From: Aphelocoma coerulescens
Taxonomy: Eukaryota > Chordata > Aves > Passeriformes > Corvidae
Reading direction: 5' to 3'
Assembly (NCBI RefSeq): GCF_041296385.1
Contig: NW_027183519.1
Location: 248,001-312,000 of the forward strand
DNA length: 64,000 nucleotides
Both the position numbers and the translations under genes were made by a program. Positions 11,048 through 50,067 of this stretch are shown in pieces. The notes beneath the pieces are model-generated. The model was not told the DNA's origin and ran no database searches. It saw nothing but the letters and a program-made list of their open reading frames with translations. The number at the start of each line of letters is the position of its first letter. The first letter of the stretch is position 1.

Positions 11048-11051
11048 CTTT

Positions 11052-11514
11052 TGTTACAAAAAGGATAGGATATTGGATTTTAGAAGTAGTAAGGCTAAGG
11101 CTCTGCTAGGCTGTAAGGCCTCAGGTGTAGAAATAGTTCTCTTGGGAAACAGGAATGGAATGTGCTGGGTGGGGAAGTTAGGAGTAGTGAATTAGCTGGG
11201 CATGGAGAACATGTCTAAAAGTAAATAGTTCTGGGTCGATATATGTTGCATGCAAGGGGGATTTCAGTGGTGGGAGTTCAATTGAGCATTATCTAAGACT
11301 AGACAACCATGAAGATATACGGCTTGAGGTATGATTATCAATTGTTAATGTTTTGTATGTGTGCCAATGTTTGAAACTGTATAAAGAGCTGAGTGAAACG
11401 ATAGGTCTTTGGGAAGCCTGATTTGGGACACCAGTCCCCAGGTCCCCGGGCCCTGAATAAAGCACCGCATAAACTGACTCTCTGTTGGTTTGTGTTTGTG
11501 GTCGGTGGGCAACA
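11052..11514 (+). repeat. ERV1 5' LTR
   Basis: 463-bp LTR, TGTTAC...GGCAACA. It carries CCAAT at 11364-11368, TATAAA at 11380-11385 and AATAAA at 11456-11461, giving a long U3 and a compact R/U5. It matches the 3' LTR except at two positions (GTGAATT versus GTGTATT, and CTTGAGG versus CTTGGGG). Confidence 0.97.
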
Positions 11515-11656: not shown

Positions 11657-11921
11657 CCACAAGGTGCTTTATTCCTTTTAAACCGGTGGTGGTAGCCTGC
11701 CCGGTAAGACGAGTCTCTACTCGCAGGGTTGGGGCATTGGTTTGGGATTATAAAGCCTAGGCGCTGGCCGTCAGACAGAGCGAAAGCTTTGCAGAGCCAG
11801 CCCTTGCTTCTCGCGGCGACGAGATAAGCAAGGAGGGAATTGGATATTGTGGTAATTGGTATTGGTATTAGTCTGTGTGTTATTAGTTGTGTGCGTTATT
11901 GTGTGGTTGCATACCTCTGGA

Positions 11922-12317
11922 ATGATGCCGTTGCGGGTGTTTCGGGCTTTGTCAAGTTCAGATAAGGATATTCCGGAGGATTCTCCCCTCGGGTGTTTGC
12001 TAAGTCATTGGAAGGAGGGTAAATTGGGACGGGAACTGCAGAAAAGAGAATTGATTGATTATTGTAATAAGGTATGGCCTGAATATGAAACTGGGGGGAT
12101 GCAGTGGCCGTGGAATGGCACTATTAATTCTGAAATTATAACCCCCATGATGCGGTATTTACGGGAAAATGAGAAGTGGGATGAGATACCCTATTTGGAT
12201 TTGTTTTATCAGCTAATAGGAAAAAAGGACTGGCAGAGGAAATGTGGAATGATGGTGTTAGAAACGGAACCAGAGGAAACGGGGGCAGGGGAAGAAGTGG
12301 TTTCGGAGGTTTTGTGA
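11922..12317 (+). pseudogene. gag: ERV1 gag remnant: matrix only
   Basis: The open frame from tandem ATGs (11922 and 11925) to TGA at 12315-12317 encodes about 131 residues. Residues from SPLGCLLSHWKEG onward align by eye with the ERV2 matrix region, sharing the WP/WPxNGT and W-rich spacing. Unlike ERV2, it has no Met-Gly start for N-myristoylation. The frame runs into sequence belonging to nucleocapsid in another frame: the whole proline-rich and capsid region present in ERV2 (roughly 1 kb) is missing. An open frame extends upstream but lacks ATG. It cannot supply a capsid, so this copy could only move with help from another element. Confidence 0.85.
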
Positions 12318-12577: not shown

Positions 12578-12925
12578 CTAGATAAAGATCTAAAAGTGGT
12601 CCTGGAAGTTGACGGGGGGCCCAGGGAATTTAGGGTAGATACAGGAGCCACTTTCTCTGCAATCAATGAACAAATAGGACCGTTAAGTGATTCAGTTGTG
12701 AAAGTAGTAGGGGTGTCGGGGGAGGTGGTGGAGAGGTCATTCTTGCGGCCACTGGAAATCAAATTTGGAAACAAAGAATTGGATCACCAGTTTTTATATA
12801 TGCCAAGCAGCCCGGAATGCTTGTTGGGGCGAGATTTATTATCGGCACTGGATGCAAAAATCATATTTGAGAAAGGGCGTGCTAAACTAGAAATCCCGGA
12901 GGGAATCCGGCAAAACTTTTTGTGA
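12578..12925 (+). pseudogene. pro: ERV1 protease, in frame with gag across UGA
   Basis: Aspartic protease of the retropepsin type, which would cleave the Gag-Pol polyprotein. The catalytic motif VDTGATFSAIN and the later LLGRDLL flap/helix motif are both present in a frame continuous with nucleocapsid through the UGA at 12575. The domain is complete, about 110 residues, but the frame closes at 12923-12925, just after a run of five T's. Polymerase resumes one frame over. ERV2 has no such break, so this looks like a single-base indel rather than programmed frameshifting. Confidence 0.88.
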
Positions 12926-14301
12926 TTAAAGAGACAAAGACAGAGGAGATACCCCAGGAAATAGAGCAGGCAGTAGTCCCGTGGGTATGGGAAACAGGGA
13001 CCCCGGGCAGATCCAGGGTAGCCGTTCCTGTGAAAATTGAATTAAAGGAAGGGGCACACCCGGTAAGAGTTCGACAGTATCCTATCAGTTTGGAAGCCAG
13101 GAAAGGAATTGCCCCAATGATCACGCAATTTATAGCATTAGGGATTTTACAAGAATGCGAATCGGAATTTAATACTCCAATCTTTCCGGTAAGGAAACCA
13201 AATGGGAAATACAGGTTGGTGCAGGACCTGAGAGCAGTAAATGCAATTGCCAAAGATATACACCCGGTGGTGGCCAATCCATATGCATTGTTAACATCGA
13301 TTTCTGAGAATTTTCAGTGGTTCACAGTGATTGATCTAAAAGACGCCTTCTTCTGCATCCCACTGGCCCCCGAGAGTCGACACATTTTCGCCTTTGAATG
13401 GGAAAGCCCAGACACTCGCCGCAAGCGACAGTTAACATGGACCAGGTTGCCACAAGGATTTAAGTGTTCACCCACCATTTTTGGAAACCAGCTAGCAAAG
13501 GAGTTAGAGGAATGGAAAACTACCAAGGTAAAAGATTCTCCTTTTTCTTATGTTGTTTTACAATATGTGGATGACATACTCCTGGGAACAGAGGAGCGGG
13601 GACTGTGCTCAAAGTTAACAATTGAACTATTAAACATGTTGGGTCAGGCAGGATACCGAGTATCCAAGGAAAAAGCGCAGCTGGTGCAACAGAAGGTGAT
13701 TTATCTGGGATGTGAAATATCACAAGGAGTCAGGAGAATAGGGGTGAACCGCATTCAAGCCATCTGTGCAATCCCTGTACCACGAAATAATCAGGAACTA
13801 AGATCTTTTCTAGGAATGGTCGGCTGGTGTCGCCTGTGGATTCCGAATTTCGGACTTATGGCCAAACCACTATATGAAACAATCAAGGAACCCGAATTCA
13901 AGTGGGGTAAGACACAGCACAAGGCCTTTCAGGAATTGAAGCAAGCACTCAAAGAGGCCCCCGCTCTGGGTCTGCCTGACCTGACAAAAGACTTTCAATT
14001 GTATGTGCATGAAAGGCAGAGATTAGCTTTAGGAGTACTCACACAGCGATTGGGGTCATGGAAGAGGCCCGTGGGGTACTTCTCGAAACAGCTGGACATG
14101 GTGAGCGGAGGGTGGCCAGGGTGTTTGCGAGCAGTGGCTGCTACGGTAATCCTAATTCAGGAGGCACGGAAGCTGACACTGGGAAAACACATCACGGTAT
14201 ATGTACCTCCCATATATGTACGTCTTGGAACAAAAAGGGGGGCATTGGCTCTCCTCCAGCAGAATGATGCAGTACCAGGCTCAGTTGCGGGAACAAGATG
14301 A
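12922..14301 (+). pseudogene. pol: ERV1 reverse transcriptase segment
   Basis: Reverse transcriptase palm and fingers with [17 protein letters not shown] and the catalytic YVDD (13564-13575), followed by the thumb/connection region. The segment is offset by one frame from both protease before it and RNase H after it. Homology to ERV2 leaves this frame at about 14205-14235 and continues in the next. Two small indels of opposite net effect therefore bracket the domain. The first codon given (GTG) is only the frame limit, not a real start. Confidence 0.9.
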
Positions 14302-15847
14302 TGTTGAATTGAAAATAACCAACCATCTCAATCCAGCAGAATTCCTTAGGTCCACCCAAGAGGAAGGAGAACTGGAGCATGACTGCGTGGAGGTGATCGA
14401 ACAAGTGTATGCCAGCCGTGAAGATCTGAAAGATGTCCCGATGGCAGATCCCGATGTGGAGCTGTTTACGGACGGATCCAGTTTTATGGAGCATGGAACC
14501 AGGTATGCAGGGTATGCTGTGGTGACACTCCAGGAAATAGTGGAAGCTAAAGCACTGCCTCCGGAAACTTCAGCGCAAAAAGCAGAAGTATGGGCGTTGG
14601 TAAGGGCATTGGTCCTTAGTAGAGACAGGAAAGTGAACATTTGGACTGATTCAAAGTATGCATTTGGTGTAGTTCACATCCATGGGGCTCTGTGGAAAGA
14701 AAGAGGACTTTTGACCTCTCAAGGCTCACAGATCAAACATAAGGAAGTAATAATTCAGTTGTTGGAAGCTGTACACTTACCTAAAGCAGTAGCGATCATG
14801 CATGTCCGAGGTCATCAAGCAGACTCCGGGAAGGAATTTCAGGGGAATCGGATGGCAGATGAAGCTGCGAAAAAGGCAGCCAGATTGGTCTGGACTCAAA
14901 TGGCTCTGATACCGACAAGAGAAAATCCCGCTGCACCTTATTTGGAAGAGAAACCGTGCTACTCTCCGGAGGATGAACGGTTGGCACAATTCACTGGAGC
15001 AAGAAGGAATGTTGTAGGATGGTATGTAACACCGGTCGGACAAGTTATACTGCCAGTGGAATTAATGAAAGTAGTCATGAAAACTGAACATAACAAACTC
15101 CACTGTGGTGCAGAAGCATTGGTAGAACATCTAAAGAAAATAGTACTCTCTAATTCGATGATAACAATGGCCAAAAGAATAAATGCCACCTGCCCGATTT
15201 GCATTAAAAATAACCCGTTGGTTAGAAGACAGGTCCAAATGGGGAAAATACGTGTAGGGCCACAACCAGGGGATTACTGGCAAATAGATTTTTCCGAGTT
15301 ACCAAAATCTCAGGCATACAAGTACTTACTAGTTTATGTGTGCACCTTTTCAGGATGGCCCGAAGCTTTCCCTTGCAGAACGAACCAGGCCAAGGAGGTA
15401 GTGAAAACCCTTCTCAAGGAAATTATTCCGAGGTTTGGGGTTCCTTTAGGAATATCATCAGATAGAGGACCACATTTTACTGCAGGAATCGTGCAGGAAG
15501 TTTCTACTATTCTGGGAATTCAGTGGCACTTACACACCCCCTGGAGACCTCAATCTAGTGGTCAGGTGGAACGAATGAATCAAACTCTGAAAAATCAAAT
15601 TAAAAAGATTTGTCAAGAAGCTAAAATACAGTGGCCCCAAGCATTGCCTCTAGCCCTTCTGAGGATTAGGATTAAACCACGAGAAAGGATAGGGGTAAGT
15701 CCGTATGAAATTTTGTACGGCAAACCATATCATGCTGTAACCTATCAAGGGGACCCACATGTAATTGGGGATCAGATGATTGTAAATTATGTTTTGTCTT
15801 TAAATAAGACCCTTGCAGCACTGAGATCCACGCTGGAGTGGAATTGA
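14201..15847 (+). pseudogene. pol: ERV1 RNase H and integrase
   Basis: From about 14230 the frame carries the end of the connection domain (GGHWLS), then RNase H with FTDGSS, an AEVWAL glutamate and WTDSKYAF. Integrase follows, with the HHCC zinc module near 15090-15200, catalytic Asp in WQIDF, Asp in SSDRGPHF and Glu in SSGQVERMN, in DD(35)E spacing. A TGA at 15845-15847 cuts off the C-terminal integrase domain, which continues in the same frame after it. RNase H removes RNA from the hybrid during reverse transcription, and integrase inserts the DNA copy. Confidence 0.9.
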
Positions 15848-16096
15848 CCGTTACCTCTGGACACTCCTGCTCACGATATTCACCCAGGAGACCAAGTTTA
15901 TGTGAAGAACTGGTCGGTGGAGCCTCTGAAGGAAACATGGGACGGCCCCCATCAAGTGATAATGACAACTTACACCGCCGTCAAGGTCGACGGGATCAAC
16001 AGCTGGATCCATTACACACGGGTCAAAAAGGTCCCCTCCCGATGGTCGGTGGAACCCCTATCTCCCACAAGAATGGTGTTCAAAGCCAAAAATTAA
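15848..16096 (+). pseudogene. pol: ERV1 integrase C-terminal domain after a nonsense codon
   Basis: The integrase frame continues past the TGA with HPGDQVYVK, WDGPHQV and WIHYTRVKK, the GPY/F-type chromatin- or DNA-binding tail also present in ERV2. It ends at TAA 16094-16096, which overlaps the env ATG (TAATG). The single stop is the only break between this and the catalytic core. Confidence 0.85.
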
Positions 16097-18252
16097 TGCT
16101 GTTGTTGTTACTCTTGAGTAAAATAATAATTGTTGAAACCTTTGTTAAAATCACAATACCTGAATCAAGGGTGTGGGTACCGGAGAATTCAAATGTAAAT
16201 CTCACATGTTTGTTTGTCGATGACCAGGGAGCTGGATGGGACAGAGTCGGGGCACGATGGAAATGGATCACCAAGGATCAAATTCAGGATAAAGGAGTAG
16301 AAACGGTCTGGGATGAGAAGCAGCAAAAAGGTAGGACTACCCTGCAGATATCCAATGTAACAAAGGCCAGAACAGGAAAATATGCTTGTATAGTTTGGAT
16401 AAAAGGGAGTTATGATTATGGATTCGTAAATCTTGACATTTTAAATATCTCCCAAACAGAACCGGAAAATAAGGTCCAGGCGACTCTCCCAAATGGGAAA
16501 GTAGATATGTGGGACGGACCTCCTCTCAGAATAAAATGTACTCACAAAATTGAGACAGGGTGTCAGAAACAGATTGGAATGAAATGGTGGAAATGGAACA
16601 CGACACAGGAAATGTGGAATCCACAGGTACAAGGGACAAGTTGGTGGACGCAGGGAAATGAAAGCAGAGGATGGTTGAATATAACGAACTCAGAGATTGG
16701 TAGATCGGAGGGTAAATACCTTTGTGTTCTCGTTTGTGGTAATAGGGGAGGTTATGGGGTCAGGAAGGTAGAAGTGGTATTACAACAGGATCGAGGAATC
16801 AAGCCTGAACAGGAAATATATAACGCAAAGGAAGGGCAGGATTTGGTTTTAAGATGTAGGATACCAACTGAAAGCTACACTGAGTATGAATGGTGGTTTG
16901 GAGGACAGAACTTGGTGGCTCAAGGGAAATATCAAATTAGAAGAAAACCCCAAGAAATAGTGTTAGTAATTAAAGAGGTCCTGGAACAGCAAGATAATGG
17001 ACAATACTGGTGTTGGGTTGCTCGAGATGATTGGTGGGCAACCGGGATGATTAGTGTTTATGTTGAAAGAGCAAGGGTGACTCGGCAGGTACCAGAGGAT
17101 GAAATCCGAACCAAACCAGAGAATCTGATTGTGGGTTTAATTAGGGATTTTGGGCAAACACAAAATGTATCAGCAATCACTGCATGTCTGCCTTTGCCCC
17201 ATGCGGCAGGAGATCCTATACCATGGGGAATTATACCAGCTCCAGACATGCCTGCATCTAATCGAACAGTTACCTTAAGTTGTACCCAGGAGACTAGGAT
17301 CCGAACTAAATTGGTTAATTGGACAAATGTGATAAGGAAACGCTGGAAAACCCCGGGGAACCGAGCAGATTGTTACAAGCTTCCGAATGCTGTATTTACC
17401 AAAATCGGAAGATTCCATGGAGTAGGATGGTGTGAATACGATGAGAGGCAAACGCTAGAAGTCCCGGCAACTGAACAATATTTTGAAATAATATGCCAGA
17501 ATGTTACAAACACAACTACCATGGAGCAATGGCAGACAATCTGGGGACCTAGTTTGTTAGAAACCTATCGTTACATAGGAACAGTTCAATGGTGTATTTA
17601 TTGGAAGGGACGGAAAAATCAAACTTACTCAAAGACCTATCAAGGACAGGGTAGTTGGAGAAAAGATGCACCTGGAATGACCGATTGGAATTGCACTAAG
17701 GTCTTCACTTGTGACAGCCCAAGTGAGTCTGTGAGTCTACTGCCTGTAAAGGTACTTTTGAGATTTGGCTGTGAATGTAGGGGATATAACCACACGATAA
17801 AAGACAAAAATACAGAAGGAGAGTTAAACTGTAAAACTACATCAATCCGAGCTCCAGGAAATTTAGTTTGGGTAATGGGTCACGGACACTGGACCACTCA
17901 TATGCCGGTAGACGGTCCAACTACACAAATTACTTTAGGAGTTCCAACTCTTTGTCCTTTTTGGAAATCGACAAAATTGACGGCCTCAGAAATACAAATG
18001 AGACATAAGCGAGATATAAGTCAGGAAATTGGAGACATAGGGTTAGAAGAAGGGGAAGATTGGCATGGACCTTCTTCAGGAGTTAAATTTACCCACTCTT
18101 CAGGAGTGGGTATTAGAATCTCTCTTTGCACCAATATCATCATATCGAAACAGGGAAATGTTGTACAAATTGTTGGGGCAAACAGAAAGGTTGGCGGCTG
18201 TGACCAAGAAGGGATTCAAGGACTTAAATCTGCAGTTACAAGCTTCGTCTAG
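16096..18252 (+). CDS. env: ERV1 Env surface subunit with three Ig-like domains
   Basis: Open frame of 718 codons from an ATG that overlaps the pol stop (TAATG); the larger frame upstream from 15838 is only pol in another frame. Residues 1-16 are a Leu/Ile signal peptide. Three Ig-like units follow: about 18-116 (Cys38, Trp55/57, RTGKYAC at 92-98), 130-230 (Cys148, Trp164, SEGKYLC at 204-210) and 238-325 (Cys254, Trp266, DNGQYWC at 300-306). Residues ~330-635 are Cys- and N-glycan-rich and resemble retroviral surface protein, ending in a furin-type RHKR (636-639). The frame then runs out at 18252 without a membrane anchor, because the transmembrane subunit is in another frame. As it stands it would encode a secreted, glycosylated protein. 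Retroviral surface proteins bind host receptors; the role of the Ig region is unknown. Confidence 0.85.
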   Translation: MLLLLLLSKIIIVETFVKITIPESRVWVPENSNVNLTCLFVDDQGAGWDRVGARWKWITKDQIQDKGVETVWDEKQQKGRTTLQISNVTKARTGKYACIVWIKGSYDYGFVNLDILNISQTEPENKVQATLPNGKVDMWDGPPLRIKCTHKIETGCQKQIGMKWWKWNTTQEMWNPQVQGTSWWTQGNESRGWLNITNSEIGRSEGKYLCVLVCGNRGGYGVRKVEVVLQQDRGIKPEQEIYNAKEGQDLVLRCRIPTESYTEYEWWFGGQNLVAQGKYQIRRKPQEIVLVIKEVLEQQDNGQYWCWVARDDWWATGMISVYVERARVTRQVPEDEIRTKPENLIVGLIRDFGQTQNVSAITACLPLPHAAGDPIPWGIIPAPDMPASNRTVTLSCTQETRIRTKLVNWTNVIRKRWKTPGNRADCYKLPNAVFTKIGRFHGVGWCEYDERQTLEVPATEQYFEIICQNVTNTTTMEQWQTIWGPSLLETYRYIGTVQWCIYWKGRKNQTYSKTYQGQGSWRKDAPGMTDWNCTKVFTCDSPSESVSLLPVKVLLRFGCECRGYNHTIKDKNTEGELNCKTTSIRAPGNLVWVMGHGHWTTHMPVDGPTTQITLGVPTLCPFWKSTKLTASEIQMRHKRDISQEIGDIGLEEGEDWHGPSSGVKFTHSSGVGIRISLCTNIIISKQGNVVQIVGANRKVGGCDQEGIQGLKSAVTSFV

Positions 18253-18691
18253 GATGACAATTCAAAATCGGATGGCTTTAGATATGATATTGTTGAAGGA
18301 GCATGGCATATGTGGATATCTGCATGGTAGAGATGATCATTGCTGCATTCACATCCCGAATGTTACACAGGAAGTAGAAAAGGATATAAGTCAATTAGAA
18401 CAGATTGAAGGAAAGGTGAATAATATTCAGAAAGAGGCAGAACATAATTGGGTTGGAGAACTGTTCAGCTCCCTGGGAATTCGGATGTCCGGATGGATAT
18501 CCTCAATTGTACAGTATGGAATCATGATTGTTATAATCATTTTAGTTGCCTTAATAGTATATAAGTGTCTTTTAGGAATGATTGTCAAGGAAGGTCAACA
18601 CTCTCGGCGAATAATGAAGGCGATAATGCGAAGAGAAGTTCTGGCAGAACCAGCCACTCCACCTCCTGCTTATCGCGAAAAGGCAACATGA
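18065..18691 (+). pseudogene. env: ERV1 Env transmembrane subunit, frame-shifted
   Basis: A frame offset from the surface subunit, open from about 18047, carries a heptad-rich helix, a QNRMALD-type conserved segment in the region called immunosuppressive in other ERVs, a Cys...Cys-Cys loop, a second helix, a hydrophobic anchor (IMIVIIILVALIVY) and a cytoplasmic tail ending near ATPPPAY. The Cys loop reads C-9 residues-CC, whereas the usual motif has six between. The exact frameshift site lies between about 18047 and 18180 and I cannot place it. No clear hydrophobic fusion peptide is seen after RHKR in any frame. Without the surface frame it has no signal peptide. Confidence 0.85.
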
Positions 18692-18750: not shown

Positions 18751-19213
18751 TGTTACAAAAAGGATAGGATATTGGATTTTAGAAGTAGTAAGGCTAAGGC
18801 TCTGCTAGGCTGTAAGGCCTCAGGTGTAGAAATAGTTCTCTTGGGAAACAGGAATGGAATGTGCTGGGTGGGGAAGTTAGGAGTAGTGTATTAGCTGGGC
18901 ATGGAGAACATGTCTAAAAGTAAATAGTTCTGGGTCGATATATGTTGCATGCAAGGGGGATTTCAGTGGTGGGAGTTCAATTGAGCATTATCTAAGACTA
19001 GACAACCATGAAGATATACGGCTTGGGGTATGATTATCAATTGTTAATGTTTTGTATGTGTGCCAATGTTTGAAACTGTATAAAGAGCTGAGTGAAACGA
19101 TAGGTCTTTGGGAAGCCTGATTTGGGACACCAGTCCCCAGGTCCCCGGGCCCTGAATAAAGCACCGCATAAACTGACTCTCTGTTGGTTTGTGTTTGTGG
19201 TCGGTGGGCAACA
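18751..19213 (+). repeat. ERV1 3' LTR
   Basis: 463 bp, same termini as the 5' copy and two substitutions from it. AATAAA is at 19155-19160. It is followed by the target duplication CTTT at 19214-19217. Confidence 0.97.
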
Positions 19214-19217
19214 CTTT

Positions 19218-22080: not shown

Positions 22081-25000
22081 TAGGCACACAGAAACAGCAG
22101 CATGCTAACAAAAAATATGTGTTGTGCCCCAAAAACTTGTGAAGTAGCTAGGGGAAGCTGACAGTAATGAGACAGTAAGCATCGTGCCCAGTGCTCTGTA
22201 AGGTCAATTTCTTCCTCATTACCAGTGCCTCTTACTCCTGCTGCTGGGCAGTCTGCTAGCCAAAAACACCAAGGTAATAAACAAAGATTTATTTTTAAAG
22301 GCTTTTGTGACTCTTGAAGATATGTCTCAATTAATTTCTTTTATTAAAACAACTTACTTCTCAGTTAAAGGTCAGCTATTCATTCCCAGGCACTTAACTT
22401 GGTTTTGAAAGGAGGAGTTCTTTAAGAATGTATCAATTAATTCAGGATTTTCTTGAGCAGAATAACAACCTAGCATAGGCTGGGCTTCGGATTCTGCTCC
22501 CATGTATAAGGGATGTCACAGCTCAGAGTTTCTGGGCTTGGGAATGGTGTTGGCATGTTGCTAGAGCCTGCCAGTTTGCATGATGTGAAGACTCTGGACG
22601 TCTAAAACAAATACTAACAAAACTATTCCTTCTGTTTTATTGCAGGCCTTCCCGTGAGCTCTCCAACAAGTTTAACAAGCAAGAGCAATAGAGAGTTTGC
22701 TCTATGCACACCGATGGAAAAAGGCTGGTGTGGGTGGGAGAGGGGCAGTCTGAGGAAAGGAAATGTTCAGGGAGCAAGAAGGATCTAGGGGAATAATGAA
22801 CCTGACACACAGTACAGAGAAGCAGAAAAGTGATGTTCAGCTTGTAGCATTGAGTAACTTTGCTGTGATTTCAGCTGAGTACCATGTTGGACTAGCTGAT
22901 ACTGGAAAGAAAACACGGTGGGACCACAAAAAAAATCAGGCCTGGCATATTACGTGATGCCATGGGAAGCTCATATAAATAGTGTTTACCAAGGCACTTG
23001 TTCTTGCCAGGCTCTCATTCCTCACCCTGTAGTTAGAAGCAGCAAGTCCCAGAGTAAGGCAAGTTTCCTGTGCTAATGAACCTGTATTGTCCTATTTTCC
23101 TTTCTCTGGGCTTATCAGGAAACAGTCTCTTCTGTACTGGTCTCTGCAGTTCTTGCTGCTGCTGCCTGCAGAATCTTGGCCCTCCTGTTACCATGATGGA
23201 TGTATTTCTCCAATTCATTTTTATTCTGATCCCAGATTATTCCATAACTGGAAAATACCTTTGAGATTCAGAGAAACTAGACAGGAGTGGCTGACTTGTG
23301 AGACACTTTAATGAAAGAAGTGGGGAAATGAGCTTAAGGTTTTAGTTCCTCACTCTGTTTTGTTCAGTAATGTTTCTTTTCAGCTGTCATGTTTCTTATT
23401 GATGGTCACAAGTAGTTAAAATGCTGACCTATGTTTTTTTCTTTCCTTCATTACTCACATCTTGGTCCATTAACACATAACCAGGAAAAAAAACCCAGTG
23501 GATTTCAGTCCTCAGTTTTTCTCCTGAGGAGAGGCACACATCTCCTGCACAAATGCAGGGATACGTATTCCTGTTTTTCAGTGCAGTTTGTTTCTGTTGG
23601 CATTTCCAGTCAGTATCCAGGGTAACTCATTGCTGTGATAATTGCCTGCTTGCCCTCTATATCATGTAGTATAATAGATAAGGTAAAAAAAAGGCAGTAG
23701 TATTTCCTTGGGAAATCTGAAGCAATCACATGGAATTAAGAATTCATAGGAATTATTTTAGTCACTTGATGATGGCTCAGTTTCCAACCTTACATTATCA
23801 CCCCTCAGCAGACAGGCACCGAGGGAAAGAGAATTTCTGCTTTAAAGAAACAGTCATTTTTCAGAGATAAAGTCTTGGGCAATGATTGTTTCCTGCACTA
23901 TAGCATCAGAATGTCTCAGTTATGACTGTATTTTTTAGGCACCACACAAGCACTTAGTAAGTGATAATTTTTCCCCAGGAGGTTTCTGACTGTGTCCAGA
24001 CAAATAAGGGTAGAAGAGTGGGGAAGGGGGAAAGAAAACAACCACAAAACCATTTTTTAATAGTGGGCATGAGTTTAAAATCAGTTTTGCAAGGAAGGGG
24101 AATTCCTACACGGTTGGGAAAAACAAACCTTATTTGTTACTGTAACTCCATGGATTAGAGTTACATGTACTGCCTATACAAAAGTTTCTGTAAAAACAGG
24201 GACGTGTCTTTCAGAGACTTAGTAGAACAAAATTGTATTCTAGACCTCAAAATGGCCGTAAGAAATTGGTTTTAATGACTTAACTAATTTCATAGCTTCC
24301 ACCCAACAATTTGAGCCCTCTTCTGTTCTTTGGAAGAGGAACCATGCAATCCTACAGGTGTGGGTTGTGAGTAGGTACCTGAGTAACAAAACCTCAGTGG
24401 CTGTTACCATGTCCTCACCACTTATATATGGAGCTATAACCTCTGCTAGGACCCCTTTTCAAGAGATCACCTTCCCCAGATGCCTTTGTTTGAGAGCCAC
24501 TTCTGATATTTAGCTGGGCAAGGGAAATGCTTGACCTTGCATCGCATCTGTCCAGCCAGTCAGCTCCTTCAGTGGCAGTGAGCACTTGTCTGCTCAAGCC
24601 TCCATCCAATATGGAATGCAATCCCATGTGTTATACATTACACCCAGGGAAACACCGATATATGCAGTTTCTGTTTTCTCTCTGGAAGTTTAGTCATTGT
24701 TTTTTCATAGGCTCTATGCAGACAGGTAATAAATATTTTGTGTTGTTGATACCTGACTCAAATTCACATTAGCACCTGAAGGTAGAAATGTATTCCTTTA
24801 AACCCAGCCCTAAAAAATGTCCCAGAGGCTCACAACAGTCACTCCAAATGTGGCAGAGAGCAGACACATTCATCTATAACAGCACTCAAGAAACTTGCTA
24901 TCTACAAATATTGAACCTCTTTGGAATTCTTCATCTACTATTAGCACTTTTTTTTTTTTTTTTTTTAATTAGCAGTGAATATTTTGGTCTTTCTTCTGTT

Positions 25001-25385: not shown

Positions 25386-25451
25386 CTTCTGGAAATCCTA
25401 AAAGCAGTTCTGGAAACCAGACTCAGACAGGGAGTGATATCCGCTATTCTA
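25386..25451 (+). CDS. EMCN: EMCN exon: extracellular stem
   Basis: A 66-nt exon, phase 1 to phase 1, between TGTCTAG and GTGAGT. It encodes a Ser/Asn/Gly-rich stretch (ASGNPKSSSGNQTQTGSD) with an N-glycosylation sequon (NQT), ending just before the membrane. This matches the position and character of the juxtamembrane stem in mammalian endomucin, an O-glycosylated sialomucin of venous and capillary endothelium that limits leukocyte adhesion. It joins in frame to the transmembrane exon at 26995. The exon call rests on splice sites, phase and context, since mucin stems diverge quickly. Confidence 0.75.
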
Positions 25452-26544: not shown

Positions 26545-26994
26545 CCTTGAAAAAGAGGAAAAAATAAATTGCATGTTCAAAAAATTTGTTTCTGGAACAC
26601 GACTTTCTCACAAAACCTTTGGAGGCCATCAGCATTGGGGTTGAATGACGAGTGTTTTCCTCAAAATTAGGATGGGCCCAGTGGAGCAGGTGCTGAAACT
26701 TTGTTCTTTTACTGAAAAATGGGTGAAAGCAGTTCCACAGGGCAGCATGAGTGTCAGGGAAGGGGTAAGGGTGGGAGAAGGAAGATGCTTCAGTCTTCCC
26801 TCCCCAGAGAGTCCAAGCCTGAGGCTCAGTGGTTGCAGGAAGAGTAACAGGAGCAGCAGGTTACCCTGCTCCAGAGAAATGGGTAATGTTTGGTGAAATG
26901 GAGCTGGAGGTGCCTCTCAGTGTGTGTAAGTGCCTATACACAGAGGCAGTGTAAGTCAGAGGCAGCAGCCAAAATTGTTCTCCCTCTTTTGCAG
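25452..26994 (+). other. EMCN: EMCN intron
   Basis: The intron between stem and transmembrane exons. It contains A-rich and T-rich simple repeats, including a (TC)n then T30 run at 26503-26544. No other gene is seen. Confidence 0.65.
26515..26544 (+). repeat. poly-T tract, 30 nt
   Basis: An uninterrupted T run after a (TC)n stretch inside the EMCN intron. It could be a simple-sequence expansion or the tail of a minus-strand retrocopy. No adjacent retrogene is recognised. Confidence 0.9.
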
Positions 26995-27090
26995 ATGTTA
27001 TCTTGCCAATTGTCATCACCCTGATAGTCATTACCCTCTCTGTCTTCTCACTGGTGGCTTTGTACAAGATGTGCCAGAAGAAAACTCCAG
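26995..27090 (+). CDS. EMCN: EMCN exon: transmembrane segment
   Basis: A 96-nt exon (acceptor TTTTGCAG, donor CCAG|GTATTT) joining the stem exon in phase 1. It encodes a single membrane-spanning helix (VILPIVITLIVITLSVFSL) followed by VALYKMCQKK, a basic, Cys-containing start of the cytoplasmic tail. The run ILPxVIxLIVITLSVF is nearly the same as in mammalian endomucin, which is the main reason for the gene name. The protein is a type I membrane sialomucin. The intron after this exon is the one that received ERV2. Confidence 0.9.
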
Positions 27091-38209: not shown

Positions 38210-38334
38210 GAACTTAATGCAATACTGCAAAATTAGAACTGAGCCTTGTGCCAGCAGCTGCAATAGTCATGTCTAAATGTCTGGGGTTTGAGTTCCAGCA
38301 GTCAAAATGGTATTAACTTTTTTTCTTCTTCCAG

Positions 38335-38359
38335 AGAGACAAGAGAACGGTGCTGAACA
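38335..38359 (+). CDS. EMCN: EMCN micro-exon: cytoplasmic tail
   Basis: A 25-nt exon between TTCTTCTTCCAG and GTAAGT. It encodes ERQENGAE in phase with the transmembrane exon before it and the next exon after it. The ENG core matches the equivalent short tail segment of mammalian endomucin. It begins only about 125 bp after the ERV2 3' LTR, so its acceptor and branch site are close to the insertion but appear undamaged. Confidence 0.85.
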
Positions 38360-39392
38360 GTAAGTTGAATCCTTTTGATTGCTTTGAGATCTATCACAGG
38401 GCACTTGTAAATGTAGCAGATTTTGCATAGGATCTTCTTTCATCTTTCTCTGTTTAAACATAATAATCAGTTGCCAGCCCAAAGAGAAATATCCTGTTGA
38501 AAGTGCTGCACTTGCAGTTATTGTAGACCTGTATGCATGATAAGCAGCTGTTTCAGCATGGGTAGAAATGTGGTGACTCTCAACTGTTTTGCAAGTGGTC
38601 ATTTTGAAATGGATAAACAGCTTATACTGTGCCACAGGACTCATTGGCCCAGTCTTTTTCTTTTTTTTTCCACTTTTTGCCCCATTGATCCTTCCCCTCT
38701 CCCCCCACATCTTTTCCCACTCCCCTTCTTTTGTTCATGTTTTCTTTCTTTTTATTGTGTTTCCTTTTTATTGTGGGTTATTTTTATATTTACTTATTTA
38801 TATTTATATTTCTTTTGGTCCCCATTATATCATGTTCCTCTGTCCCATCTTGTTTCCACTAGACCATTTGCGTAGGCTCAGTTGAAATAGTAGCGGCATA
38901 AGGAGTGTGAGGAGAGGGAAACTGAGAAAGATCCATTAGAAGATACGTGCTAAAGGCCATTGAGCTTGGCAGTGGCCACTTCTATGACCAAAAGCAACAT
39001 TTGGGCTGCTGATTTACTTGGTAGCCTTGACTCCCTGGGCATCTGAAGTGGTCCTTCTTTGCAATTCAATATGTCTAAAGGGCTTGCATTGACAGAAAAA
39101 GTATGACTCCTTTTCCCCAGATGTATCTCCTCTGTGAAGTCCTAGATTAAGCCTGGAGTCATTAAACGTGATTTATTACATATTGTAAGAGAAAGGTATT
39201 TTCAGAGATACTGTTATATGGTGTTTTCCACCACCAAGATTTCCACTTCATGACCCCATGCAAAGCCTTTTTTAAGCCTGCCAGTGTAGACTGGAGTAGA
39301 TGCTGCCTCCTTGGGACCATCATTTTAGAGTTTTGTTTGGCTGACCAACATGTGTGCTGTCTGTCTGCTTAAATGTTTTCTGACTTCAACAG
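38360..39392 (+). other. EMCN: EMCN intron
   Basis: Pyrimidine-rich and AT-rich intron sequence (38640-38850); nothing else is recognised. Confidence 0.7.
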
Positions 39393-39454
39393 GGCCCAGT
39401 CAGACAAAGAAGGAGTCAAACTTCTTTCTGTGAAGACAACTTCTTCTGAGACTG
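39393..39454 (+). CDS. EMCN: EMCN exon: conserved cytoplasmic tail
   Basis: A 62-nt exon (acceptor TTCAACAG, donor ACTG|GTGAGT). It encodes AQSDKEGVKLLSVKTTSSET, which is nearly the mammalian endomucin tail, including the SDKExVKLL core. Phases on both sides fit the neighbouring exons. This exon and the transmembrane exon together make the gene assignment strong. Confidence 0.93.
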
Positions 39455-39807
39455 GTGAGTGTTGCCTTTGTGTGTATGTCTGTTTCCCTGTCTGAGCTCA
39501 GAGAAGAGCAGTTTTTGGGATGTCATTTCTTATAGCAAGCCCATGTTCACTTCCTGTCAGGTCAAAGTCGCTGCAAACAATTCCTCTATAGTGCAAATGC
39601 CCAGACTGGGAGCCTGTAGAGCTGCAGTTCAGCTGTTCTGTGTGTGCTGTCAGTACTTGGGAATGAGAAGTAGGACTGGTTTAGGAAAATATTTTTTAAA
39701 ATCATTGATGGTAAGCGATCTAGCGAGGCATGTTCAGGAGTAACAGTGATCACAGTATTTATCAGCTAGATCTGGCTGTAAAAGGAGGTTTGAGGACTGG
39801 TAATATC

Positions 39808-47463: not shown

Positions 47464-50008
47464 CAGCCTTCAAAGGATCCAGGTAATCTATCTGGACTGG
47501 TTGAGCACCTCCAGTGCACCCTCTATTTTCTCAGTCACCAAAAACTTCAGTATGAAATAATTTCTTCAATCTATTAAAATGCCATCTGTTCTAACAAGCT
47601 ACTGAACACAAGTATTTAGTTTTCATTTCCTTTCTGGGAAGCAAGGTTTAACCCATTTGTTTTGGTGGGTGATGGTTTGGGGGCAAGTTTGGGTTTTTTT
47701 CAGTCTTGGAACCTGTTTGTGTCAGTTAAGGCTGTTTTGAGATCAATATAAATGTCTTCTTACTTGCACCTAGTCTGAATGTTCTTCTTGGTTTGCTCTT
47801 TGAGTTGCATCTGGATATTTAGCAGAACATCAAACTGCTGAACCATTGAACTCCCAAACTGATCTGGACACGTCTCTGTGCAGTCTCCGGGCATACTGCA
47901 GCCCTGTATCTAAATCCATCCATTACCCTTTTATCTCTTGAACAGAGAGCATCTGTGACCACTTCTTCTCCAGTGTATAATCATTGTCTCATCGTCACTG
48001 AATTGTTGGCTGGCACTAATGATCACAGACCTTAGGACAAAAATATCTTCAGGCATATTTGCAACCATGGAGCAGCCATAACTTGGTTTCGTTTCACAAG
48101 TCTTGCAGGCTCCTGCCCTCTTGGATGTGCAAAGCAACATAGAGCATCCCTGCCTGCATCCATTCCTCACCAGACATTGATATTATAGGGGGACACTGTT
48201 CACTGTTCCAGGGATAAAGTGTGTAGCACCAGGAAATCTGGATAGGGCGTGAGTGTCTGTGTGCTGCAGTCTCAGGGTGTGCAGAAAGGCAGAGTCACCC
48301 TCCCTGGCCTGGCTACCGCTGTGGGCAGGTACCACTCAAACACTCTGCCTTCTGCAGCCAACGCTGCTTGCCCATTTCATACTCTGATCCAAGGTCTAGT
48401 GGCATAAATGGGATGTAATCAGGGAGCTACGTTGACTCTGGAGCCTGCCCTTAGACATGTTATTCTCCTGGGGTGCTTCCATGTGAATCTGTCTGCAGAA
48501 AAAACAGCTGAGAGTGGAATTGATAGAAAAGTACTGATATTTATTACCACTATTGAGTATCTTCTGCATGGTAATATATTTCACAATTAATTTCTCCATC
48601 GCCTTCTTTTTTAAATAGTTTTGCCAACTTCTCTCTTTCATTCTCTATTTAATCTTCTATTTCTACATATTAAGCAAGGAAAGTAGAGACATGCAGAAGG
48701 GGAAAAGAACTAAAAAAGAAATGAGCGTTCTTGAAAATATCATTCCTTTGTTAGTATAAAACTGTGCAATATTTGAACTGGTTCACTTTATTTTAGCTTT
48801 TCAAAACAAGATTTTTATCTAACAAAAAATATGCCTTGTTAAGATGTTTCAGTTTTTTTCCTAGAAGAAACCTGTGATTCCCTTTTCTCTACCTGAAATG
48901 TGACATGATCAGAACTTCTGAAGCTCTATCTTAGCAACACTTCAAAATTACTTTAAAATATTTTTTTCCAAAATTGAACCCTTGGGAAGTGAACACAATT
49001 CCAGCACATTATTGTTGAACAGTTTTTAGCAGATACCAAGTCTTGTACTCATCTCCAAAAAGCTGGACTAAATTAAAGAGCCTTTTTTGCTGTGAAGAAA
49101 AGCTGTTGGAAAACTATTGATAAGTCTTTTCCATTCTCTTCAGGAGTGCAACTATTTAATTTGGCTGCTAATCATTTAAATGCCTAATCAGTGAATTTTT
49201 CTATAATCCTAACTTGTATTACAATTTGCAACCCCAGGCCCTTGATCATTTGTAGCTTTTTAACACATATTCACTTCTCCTGGAATGTAATACATCACTT
49301 CCTTGCCTCTCATGTGTGCATGAGGAATTAAATTGTCTCCTGCAGGTGAGCAGGGAGGCAGAAGGCAGTTTCCTGGAGGCATTTGGGTTTTCCCACCCTC
49401 ATGCCTATCTCCATGTGGCTCTGGACAGTCTGTGAATGCCACTCCCTGTTCATCTCCATGTACAAATCTCTGACACAAAGTAATTCCACTGCCATTCCTG
49501 AGTCATGCCCTTGGAAACGGGACATCTGTAAACACGTCCTCATCTGGATTCTTATTTGCCTGCCTGTAACTGCTGGTAGTGCCTCTGCTTCTCCAGGGAA
49601 GGAGGATTGAGAACTGTGTGAAGTTCTTAAATATTCATCCTTCTGCTTTGGAGGAACTGAGCTGATGTCAGTGTTACTGGCAAAAATTAATTTTATAGTT
49701 CTATCTTCTTATTTTTATAGTTCAATGTTCTAATCATAGCTATAAATTAATTAAAGTCTTATTCCTCTTCAACCTTGGAAAATACATTGTGGTAGTAACC
49801 CACCATTTTTGAGCAAATCACAGGGGAGATAATCGATAAACTAGGAAGAGTACTAAAAATCTATCGTGTGAACAATTTTTGGCATTAAGTAAATCTGACA
49901 AGGAGACTGGCTGGTTTGTACAGTGGTCAGTGATGTGTTCCTGCTAGACTCATTGGTCCTTTTGTCTTTCCATGTTTATCTGATGCAAATATATTTTCTG
50001 TTTCTTAG

Positions 50009-50067
50009 GAGAGCACTCATCTCATGGGAAGAATAAAACTCGGCAACTCTTCACATCTCAGCAATAA
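50009..50067 (+). CDS. EMCN: EMCN terminal coding exon
   Basis: Acceptor TTTCTTAG, then codons giving GEHSSHGKNKTRQLFTSQQ and TAA (50065-50067). GEHSxxGKxK corresponds to the last residues of mammalian endomucin; the bird tail runs about nine residues longer. Only 3 nt after the stop is TAT|GTAAGT, a good donor. The 3' UTR may therefore be spliced to a further exon (a candidate acceptor, GTCATTTCAG, ends at 51300) or read straight through. Confidence 0.88.

What the first reader, a model, noticed from the sequence alone, without database searches (positions are those of the whole stretch)
16147..17070. Retroviral Env whose surface subunit begins with three tandem Ig-like domains
Seen: one open frame from the env ATG to beyond the RHKR site. 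Residues ~18-325 fall into three units, each with a Cys, a core Trp 15-20 residues later, and a Y-x-C-type closing motif (TGKYAC, EGKYLC, DNGQYWC). The last is a textbook V-set D-x-G-x-Y-x-C. Known: retroviral surface proteins usually begin with their own receptor-binding fold, not recognisable Ig repeats. Inference: an ancestor captured a host Ig-superfamily segment or evolved one, possibly for adhesion, receptor use or immune-ligand mimicry. I recall no described ERV of this form but cannot search. The ERV is young, so relatives may be active in this lineage.
Basis: partly seen in the sequence, partly recalled or inferred. Interest (0 to 1): 0.93.

Follow-up and report, generated by a model that had tools for sequence, protein, structure and literature searches.

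The report
Retroviral envelope wearing immunoglobulin domains
A retrovirus copy in the scrub-jay genome carries at the front of its envelope protein a chain of three predicted antibody-like (Ig) domains that Ig-free relatives in the same genome lack and that a shearwater poxvirus protein resembles, and the chain likely works as a detachable decoy or docking arm aimed at the bird's immune cells.

Summary
The Env frame begins with three Ig domains: Pfam recognises D1 and D3, and AlphaFold2 predicts all three. The genome is the Florida scrub-jay's (exact contig-length match). It gives 106 Ig-block matches, 71 on contigs summing to the W chromosome. Relatives occur in passerines, a mousebird and a parrot.

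Older loci in the same genome keep the SU core without the Ig block: the pol-to-core gap is 112-185 nt in 11 of 16 loci, against 1080 nt here. So the block is an addition, not a disguised SU fold.

RxxR precedes the core in 30 of 34 proteins. The closest protein in a viral structure library is an avipoxvirus Ig protein (SWPV1-183, 43% identity over 320 columns). D1 is nearest to B7-family V domains, by a modest margin.

I read it as a predicted furin-releasable, B7-like immune or adhesion module. Function is inferred; host donor and direction of the poxvirus exchange are unresolved. This copy is broken (SU and TM in different frames) and lies in or just upstream of an endomucin-like gene, one of whose predicted isoforms uses env as first exon.

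The parts
11048..11051 (.). target-site duplication CTTT (5' copy)
   Evidence: identical to 19214-19217
11052..11514 (+). 5' LTR, 463 nt, TG...CA
   Evidence: 2 differences to the 3' LTR (found)
11856..12317 (+). gag MA-like frame
   Evidence: Pfam Gag_MA E 4.9e-4, below the curated cut-off
12596..12925 (+). retroviral protease frame
   Evidence: Pfam RVP 1.4e-9
12922..14301 (+). reverse transcriptase frame
   Evidence: Pfam RVT_1 7.5e-29
14201..15847 (+). RNase H and integrase frame (pol is split over frames in this copy)
   Evidence: Pfam RNase_H 2.5e-27, rve 1.1e-18
15937..18252 (+). Env frame with SU; ATG at 15937 (start of homologous gene models) and at 16096 just before the hydrophobic signal peptide
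16141..16443 (+). Ig domain D1 (residues 16-116), V-like, nearest to B7-family V domains by a modest margin
16456..16788 (+). Ig domain D2 (residues 121-231), recognised by structure prediction only
   Evidence: no Pfam hit alone; AF2 strands, pLDDT 70-89 apart from residues 121-140
16795..17073 (+). Ig domain D3 (residues 234-326), I/V-type
17074..17085 (+). RVTR, minimal furin-type site in the linker between Ig block and SU core (cleavage predicted, untested)
   Evidence: RxxR at this place in 30 of 34 proteins against 5.1% background; 49 of 49 full-length copies compared
17119..18000 (+). SU core, shared with Ig-less relatives
18001..18012 (+). RHKR, SU/TM cleavage site (by motif)
   Evidence: residues 636-639
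18065..18691 (+). TM frame, different from the SU frame in this copy; CX9CC motif
   Evidence: Pfam TLV_coat 9.5e-5, just below cut-off; motif
18751..19213 (+). 3' LTR
19214..19217 (.). target-site duplication CTTT (3' copy)

Best explanation
This is the env gene of a young gamma-type-like avian endogenous retrovirus whose surface subunit carries three tandem Ig domains (two recognised by sequence, the middle one predicted from structure) between its signal peptide and an SU core that Ig-less relatives carry alone; the array is predicted to be cut from the core at a conserved RxxR site and likely acts as a B7-like immune ligand or decoy.

Shown: the three-unit array, its place, the Ig-less relatives with the same core, the conserved RxxR, and the resemblance to an avipoxvirus Ig protein. 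Predicted: the D2 fold and the cleavage. Inferred: one or more Ig domains were added to an Ig-less Env in an ancestor of this lineage, and their number changed later. While still on Env, the array docks the particle on immune or other cells. Once released it is a soluble Ig protein that engages an inhibitory or adhesion receptor, the use that avipoxviruses would make of their version.
For: Fold: Pfam, AF2, VIA-align.

Addition: gap between pol-end hit and core hit 1080 nt in the window and 3 further copies measured, against 112-185 nt in 11 of 16 divergent loci of the same genome; D1-D3 profiles find nothing below E 0.3 in those 16 loci, while 3 of 3 control copies score about 1e-38 or better for each domain; Ig-less proteins P0030, P0031, P0041 (passerines), P0044 (unnamed source) and ostrich P0052.

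Separable module: RxxR in 30 of 34 against 5.1% background; a 332-aa poxvirus protein at 43% identity over 320 columns, E 1.7e-39, next viral hit 3.3e-13.

B7-likeness: D1 profile CD276 7.3e-22 (single-V chains 1.4e-10, 4.5e-10), PD-L2 2.3e-9, PD-L1 2.8e-7; wider family profile led by CD276 2.1e-15 and PD-L2 4.1e-11; PD-L2 top structure for D1 and tied top for the kakapo single Ig.

Maintained: 63 of 106 rows lie in a frame of at least 924 codons with no stop in the match (my count).
Against: The function is untested. dN/dS between two subfamilies (0.43; D1 0.40, D2 0.62, D3 0.24) is not clearly below a neutral simulation (9.6% of 500 runs as low; D1 10.6%, D2 36.8%, D3 7.6%).

RVTR here lacks the basic P2 residue of strong furin sites (recalled). 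P0025 has no RxxR; P0010, P0013 and P0042 have only variants; Ig-less Envs have the site too. The kakapo model is poor (pLDDT 54). Some one- and two-Ig proteins may be gene-model artefacts. The range of the window model matched by the poxvirus protein is not printed; that it is the Ig block is my inference from its length and Ig-only annotation.
Confidence: 0.5

Rival explanations
1. The Ig array is the receptor-binding part of Env: it stays on SU and gives attachment to one entry receptor, with no separate immune role; RxxR is uncut or cut only partly.
For: It sits at the SU N-terminus, where gammaretroviral RBDs sit (PMC9967133, passages). Domain number differs between relatives, as expected if receptor use changes.
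Against: Ig-less relatives kept SU core and often TM, which suggests that the core can serve without it. RxxR is kept in 30 of 34. A poxvirus carries an Ig-only relative.
Confidence: 0.3
2. The three units descend from the ordinary gammaretroviral receptor-binding domain, whose core is Ig-like (recalled), and only converged on canonical Ig features.
For: The RBD core is a beta sandwich described as IgV-like (recalled).
Against: The gap is too short to hold the block in 11 of 16 related loci. The units carry canonical Cys-Trp-Cys patterns and pass Pfam Ig cut-offs. A profile of the block matches 766 PDB sequences at E<=1; the 60 shown are Ig proteins of cells.
Confidence: 0.06
3. The array came to the retrovirus from an avipoxvirus, not from a host gene; poxviruses were the first captors of the host Ig gene.
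For: SWPV1-183 is 43% identical over 320 columns; avipoxviruses hold many Ig-like genes (tables in PMC5390406, passages).
Against: Ig domains of this kind occur in varying number in Envs from passerines, mousebird and kakapo. The direction was not tested: the poxvirus sequence was not found in the collections searched.
Confidence: 0.12

Closest known systems
Gamma-type retroviral Env (review PMC9967133, passages)
   Same: SU/TM with RxKR-type site, TM with CXnCC, weak Pfam TLV_coat match
   Different: SU starts with three Ig domains; no CXXC in SU; CX9CC instead of the usual n=6; core of about 300 aa
Avipoxvirus Ig-like proteins SWPV1-183 / CNPV081 (332/333 aa) and SWPV1-144 / CNPV167
   Same: Ig-annotated protein of the block's length, 43% identity over 320 columns for SWPV1-183; SWPV1-144 at rank 18 with 31% over 140 columns
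   Different: separate gene in a DNA virus, too short to hold SU core or TM as well; annotated only as Ig-like domain protein
B7 family (CD276, PD-L2, PD-L1)
   Same: D1 is nearest by profile and fold, by a modest margin
   Different: about 20% identity; no V-C pair shown; part of a viral fusion protein
Foamy virus Env (LP/SU/TM, recalled)
   Same: would also be cut in two places
   Different: no Ig domains (recalled); no call here relates them

Membership tests
Immunoglobulin superfamily | profile match above curated cut-off | tested here: met
   Ig_3 50.9 bits (cut-off 30), ig 44.9 (21.8), V-set 31.4 (26) on the Env frame; D1 and D3 alone also pass Ig_3 (34.1, 31). D2 alone does not match
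Immunoglobulin superfamily | beta-sandwich fold of all three units | tested here: met
   predicted only: AF2; VIA-align matches span model 15-325
B7 family | V domain closest to B7 V domains | tested here: inconclusive
   best in profile and fold, but competitors lie close
B7 family | V domain followed by C-type Ig domain, TM and tail as a cell protein | tested here: not met
   D1 is followed by D2, D3 and a retroviral SU core; whether D2 is C- or V-type was not settled
Gamma-type Env | TM with CXnCC and TLV_coat-type match | tested here: met
   CX9CC in 7 of 8 relatives examined and in the window; TLV_coat 9.5e-5 in the window, slightly below cut-off, above it in P0003, P0013, P0017, P0018
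Gamma-type Env | CXXC in SU (absent from alpharetroviruses, PMC9967133) | tested here: not met
   none in the window SU or in core+TM of 8 relatives
Gammaretrovirus-like provirus (ERV1) | 4-bp target duplication, gamma-type pol and gag | tested here: inconclusive
   CTTT duplication; Gag_MA weak; no pol tree built
Avipoxvirus CNPV081-like Ig proteins | sequence homology over the whole three-Ig block | tested here: inconclusive
   Foldseek alignment of 320 columns with a 332-aa target, 43% identity, E 1.7e-39; aligned range on the window side not printed and sequence not fetched
Furin-processed Env (second site) | cleavage between Ig block and core | not testable with these tools
   only the RxxR motif was counted

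The most novel reading that the evidence does not exclude
A bird retrovirus lineage took up a host B7-family V domain, built it into a one-to-three-Ig array in front of its envelope behind a furin site, so that every Env sheds or displays an immune-checkpoint-like ligand, and avipoxviruses and these retroviruses have traded this array.
Probability: 0.3. Interest if true: 0.95.

Novelty: new variant of a known kind. Interest (0 to 1): 0.84.

Why it matters
Ig-domain immune mimics are well known in large DNA viruses (recalled; the viral structure matches include several). In my searches of open-licence PMC I saw no retroviral Env built on tandem Ig domains, though long listings were seen by title and abstract start only. 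If the module is released or binds a checkpoint-type receptor, retroviruses would have an immune-decoy strategy coded inside env. The W chromosome of a songbird would hold dozens of open copies of it, and a retrovirus-poxvirus exchange would be traceable. The Ig-less relatives in the same genome give a natural control.

Tried and rejected
Reading the pattern as chance: rejected by Pfam and structure.

Reading it as the normal retroviral SU fold: disfavoured, since related loci lack the region. No retroviral RBD appears among the 50 structure matches shown, which excludes nothing.

D2 as a duplicate of D1: considered and dropped as unproven, because D1-D3 match better.

Host donor: third protein search with a six-row profile, E<=10, gave 7 hits; best host-like are an unnamed Ig protein 2.6e-4 and JAM2A 5.3e-3 (only 1055 word-sharing candidates). 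Donor unresolved.

Relatives in IMG/VR: four scans, none. So the poxvirus link rests on the structure library alone.

Selection: dN/dS not decisive; the core comparison failed on gaps and was not repeated.

Rows dropped: divergent core places number 22 by my count, 16 were fetched; the other 6 matched only parts of the core. For profiles A7-A9 I gave 12 of 13 D1 rows (kakapo left out), 8 of 11 D2 rows and 7 of 10 D3 rows. My first domain profiles drifted between D1 and D3 and were replaced. The kakapo model is poor, so searches are weak support.

L039 looked Ig-like by eye; D-profiles say no (E 0.66), a kakapo-Ig tblastn says E 0.002: open. L050, L051 and L053 have long gaps without a significant Ig match. 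The tree has an ostrich outgroup on a very long branch and 10 rows whose N-terminus is unknown, so gain versus loss is not settled. Old Ig-less loci show no clear preference for one clade.

Papers: PMC10536682, PMC11631490, PMC9967133, PMC5390406 and PMC8151833, passages only; others as search listings.

Full report
The provirus. Two 463-nt LTRs (11052-11514, 18751-19213) differ at 2 sites and are flanked by a 4-bp duplication CTTT. At recalled bird rates of about 2-3 x 10^-9 per site per year this is roughly 0.7-1.1 million years; gene conversion could lower it. Gag, protease, RT, RNase H and integrase frames lie between, split over several frames. The Env frame is open from 15937 through 16096 to 18252, and the TM frame is a different one, so this copy is not intact. 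Other copies in the genome have one long frame.

The family. One search found 24 proteins, one search found 53 (many shared), seven. Three-Ig members include the window, P0001-P0005, P0011 and P0019 (P0004, P0011 and P0019 lack the start of D1); two-Ig forms include P0010, P0016, P0026 and P0054/P0056; one-Ig forms include P0007, P0009, P0013, P0025 and the kakapo P0032. Some are NCBI gene models and may hide domains in predicted introns; P0007, P0025, P0054 and P0056 bear the source label lgn, which I take to be Logan contigs. The mousebird P0014 starts inside D1. Ig-less forms are P0030, P0031, P0041, P0044 and ostrich P0052. P0017 and P0018 keep only part of D1. On a core+TM tree, one clade of 23 rows (100/100) holds the Ig-bearing rows other than the kakapo, the two partial ones and two rows of unknown N-terminus; the kakapo one-Ig protein groups with Ig-less and unknown rows (86/55), so the Ig was either gained early and lost, or gained twice.

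Ig-less relatives in the same genome. A core search gave 132 matches (130 of 374 candidates scored). Of 22 divergent places, 16 were fetched. All 16 carry pieces of the same SU core and 11 also TM pieces. The gap from the end of the pol hit to the start of the core hit is 1080 nt in the window and the 3 further copies measured, and 112-185 nt in 11 of 16 divergent loci; L039 (904), L050 (1540), L051 (1177) and L053 (1091) have longer gaps, and L041 gave neither hit. Several hits cover only part of their query, so the short gaps are rough. Profiles of D1-D3 find nothing below E 0.3 in the 16, while 3 of 3 control copies score about 1e-38 or better for each domain. L039 may hold half of a broken kakapo-type Ig (tblastn E 0.002).

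A second cleavage motif. RxxR begins 13-24 residues before the core in 30 of 34 proteins (near-duplicates and fused gene models included), against 5.1% of background windows; P0010, P0013 and P0042 have basic variants and P0025 none. It is present in Ig-less P0030/P0031 too (RMKR), so it may predate or outlive the block. Of 50 genome copies compared, the 49 full-length ones all keep RVTR and all 8 Ig cysteines. Cleavage is predicted, not shown.

The poxvirus link. Foldseek against the viral library puts SWPV1-183 of Shearwaterpox virus first: 332 aa, 320 columns, 43% identity, rmsd 2.6, E 1.7e-39; the next hit is 3.3e-13 at 16%, and SWPV1-144 stands at rank 18 with 31% over 140 columns. The matched range of the window model is not printed; a 332-aa Ig-annotated protein fits the block and not the core. 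The kakapo model, though poor, also ranks these two first, but at 16% and 10% identity and hardly ahead of other proteins. The genome paper lists SWPV1-183 as similar to CNPV081 (54%), 'Ig-like domain protein' (passages). So a DNA virus appears to carry the block alone. Direction is unknown.

Genome setting. C5 of the genome is 79,645,632 bases, exactly the contig length given for a protein of Aphelocoma coerulescens, P0058, so the window is Florida scrub-jay. Contigs C34-C38 sum to 41.46 Mb (lengths), matching the 41.5 Mb W chromosome reported for this bird (PMC11631490, passages). 71 of 106 Ig-block matches lie there (my count; 121 of 144 candidates scored, so counts are lower bounds). Four other copies on C5 share the window's flank at 99.5-100% over 2000 bases, so these five are one insertion multiplied by segmental duplication.

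Selection. Between two subfamilies (30 and 20 loci) dN/dS of the block is 0.43 over 580 pairs, but random substitution gives a median of 0.73 and is as low in 9.6% of runs; this does not prove constraint. Open frames in several species and many copies argue for it.

Mechanism. Relatives suggest that core and TM can serve without the block. The block is an add-on with its own folds, six N-glycosylation motifs, a predicted exit site and an Ig-annotated poxvirus counterpart. I therefore favour a displayed and predicted-releasable immune ligand or decoy of B7 type over a pure receptor-binding arm. Steps inferred: capture, release, partner.

Literature (open-licence PMC only). Searches found no paper with all terms. 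One search found one, PMC9967133; the passages I saw do not mention an Ig array and expect that novel folds exist in the N-terminal domain of SU. Searches gave listings (3,229, 3, 5 and 89 papers at partial term counts) of which I saw only the rows listed, by title and abstract start, apart from the papers named above. Absence there is weak evidence.

Noticed in passing
window 15937-16330, then about 22646-22680, 25388-25447, 26988-27089, 38331-38360, 39391-39459, 50008-50064 (+): The provirus lies in or just upstream of an endomucin-like gene. The NCBI model 'endomucin-like isoform X2' (P0058) has env (leader, signal peptide, part of D1) as first exon, joined at AAG|GTAGG inside D1 to endomucin exons found further down this window. 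The model may belong to this copy or to one of its duplicates; a possible env-driven host isoform.
   Followed up: partly
G000 C5 25.75-27.0 Mb (L075-L078): The provirus with its flank occurs five times on C5 at 99.5-100% flank identity: recent segmental duplication of the region.
   Followed up: partly
G000 C34-C38: 71 of 106 Ig-env matches lie on contigs that sum to the W chromosome, many with open Env frames.
   Followed up: partly
P0030, P0031, P0041, P0044: Ig-less Envs keep an RMKR site before the core, leaving a short peptide where the Ig block would be.
   Followed up: no
L039 1472-1651: Old locus with a possible broken single Ig of kakapo type, stop inside.
   Followed up: partly
TM of the family; window 18065-18691: CX9CC instead of CX6CC, and no CXXC in SU: an unusual disulfide layout for a gamma-type Env.
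   Followed up: no
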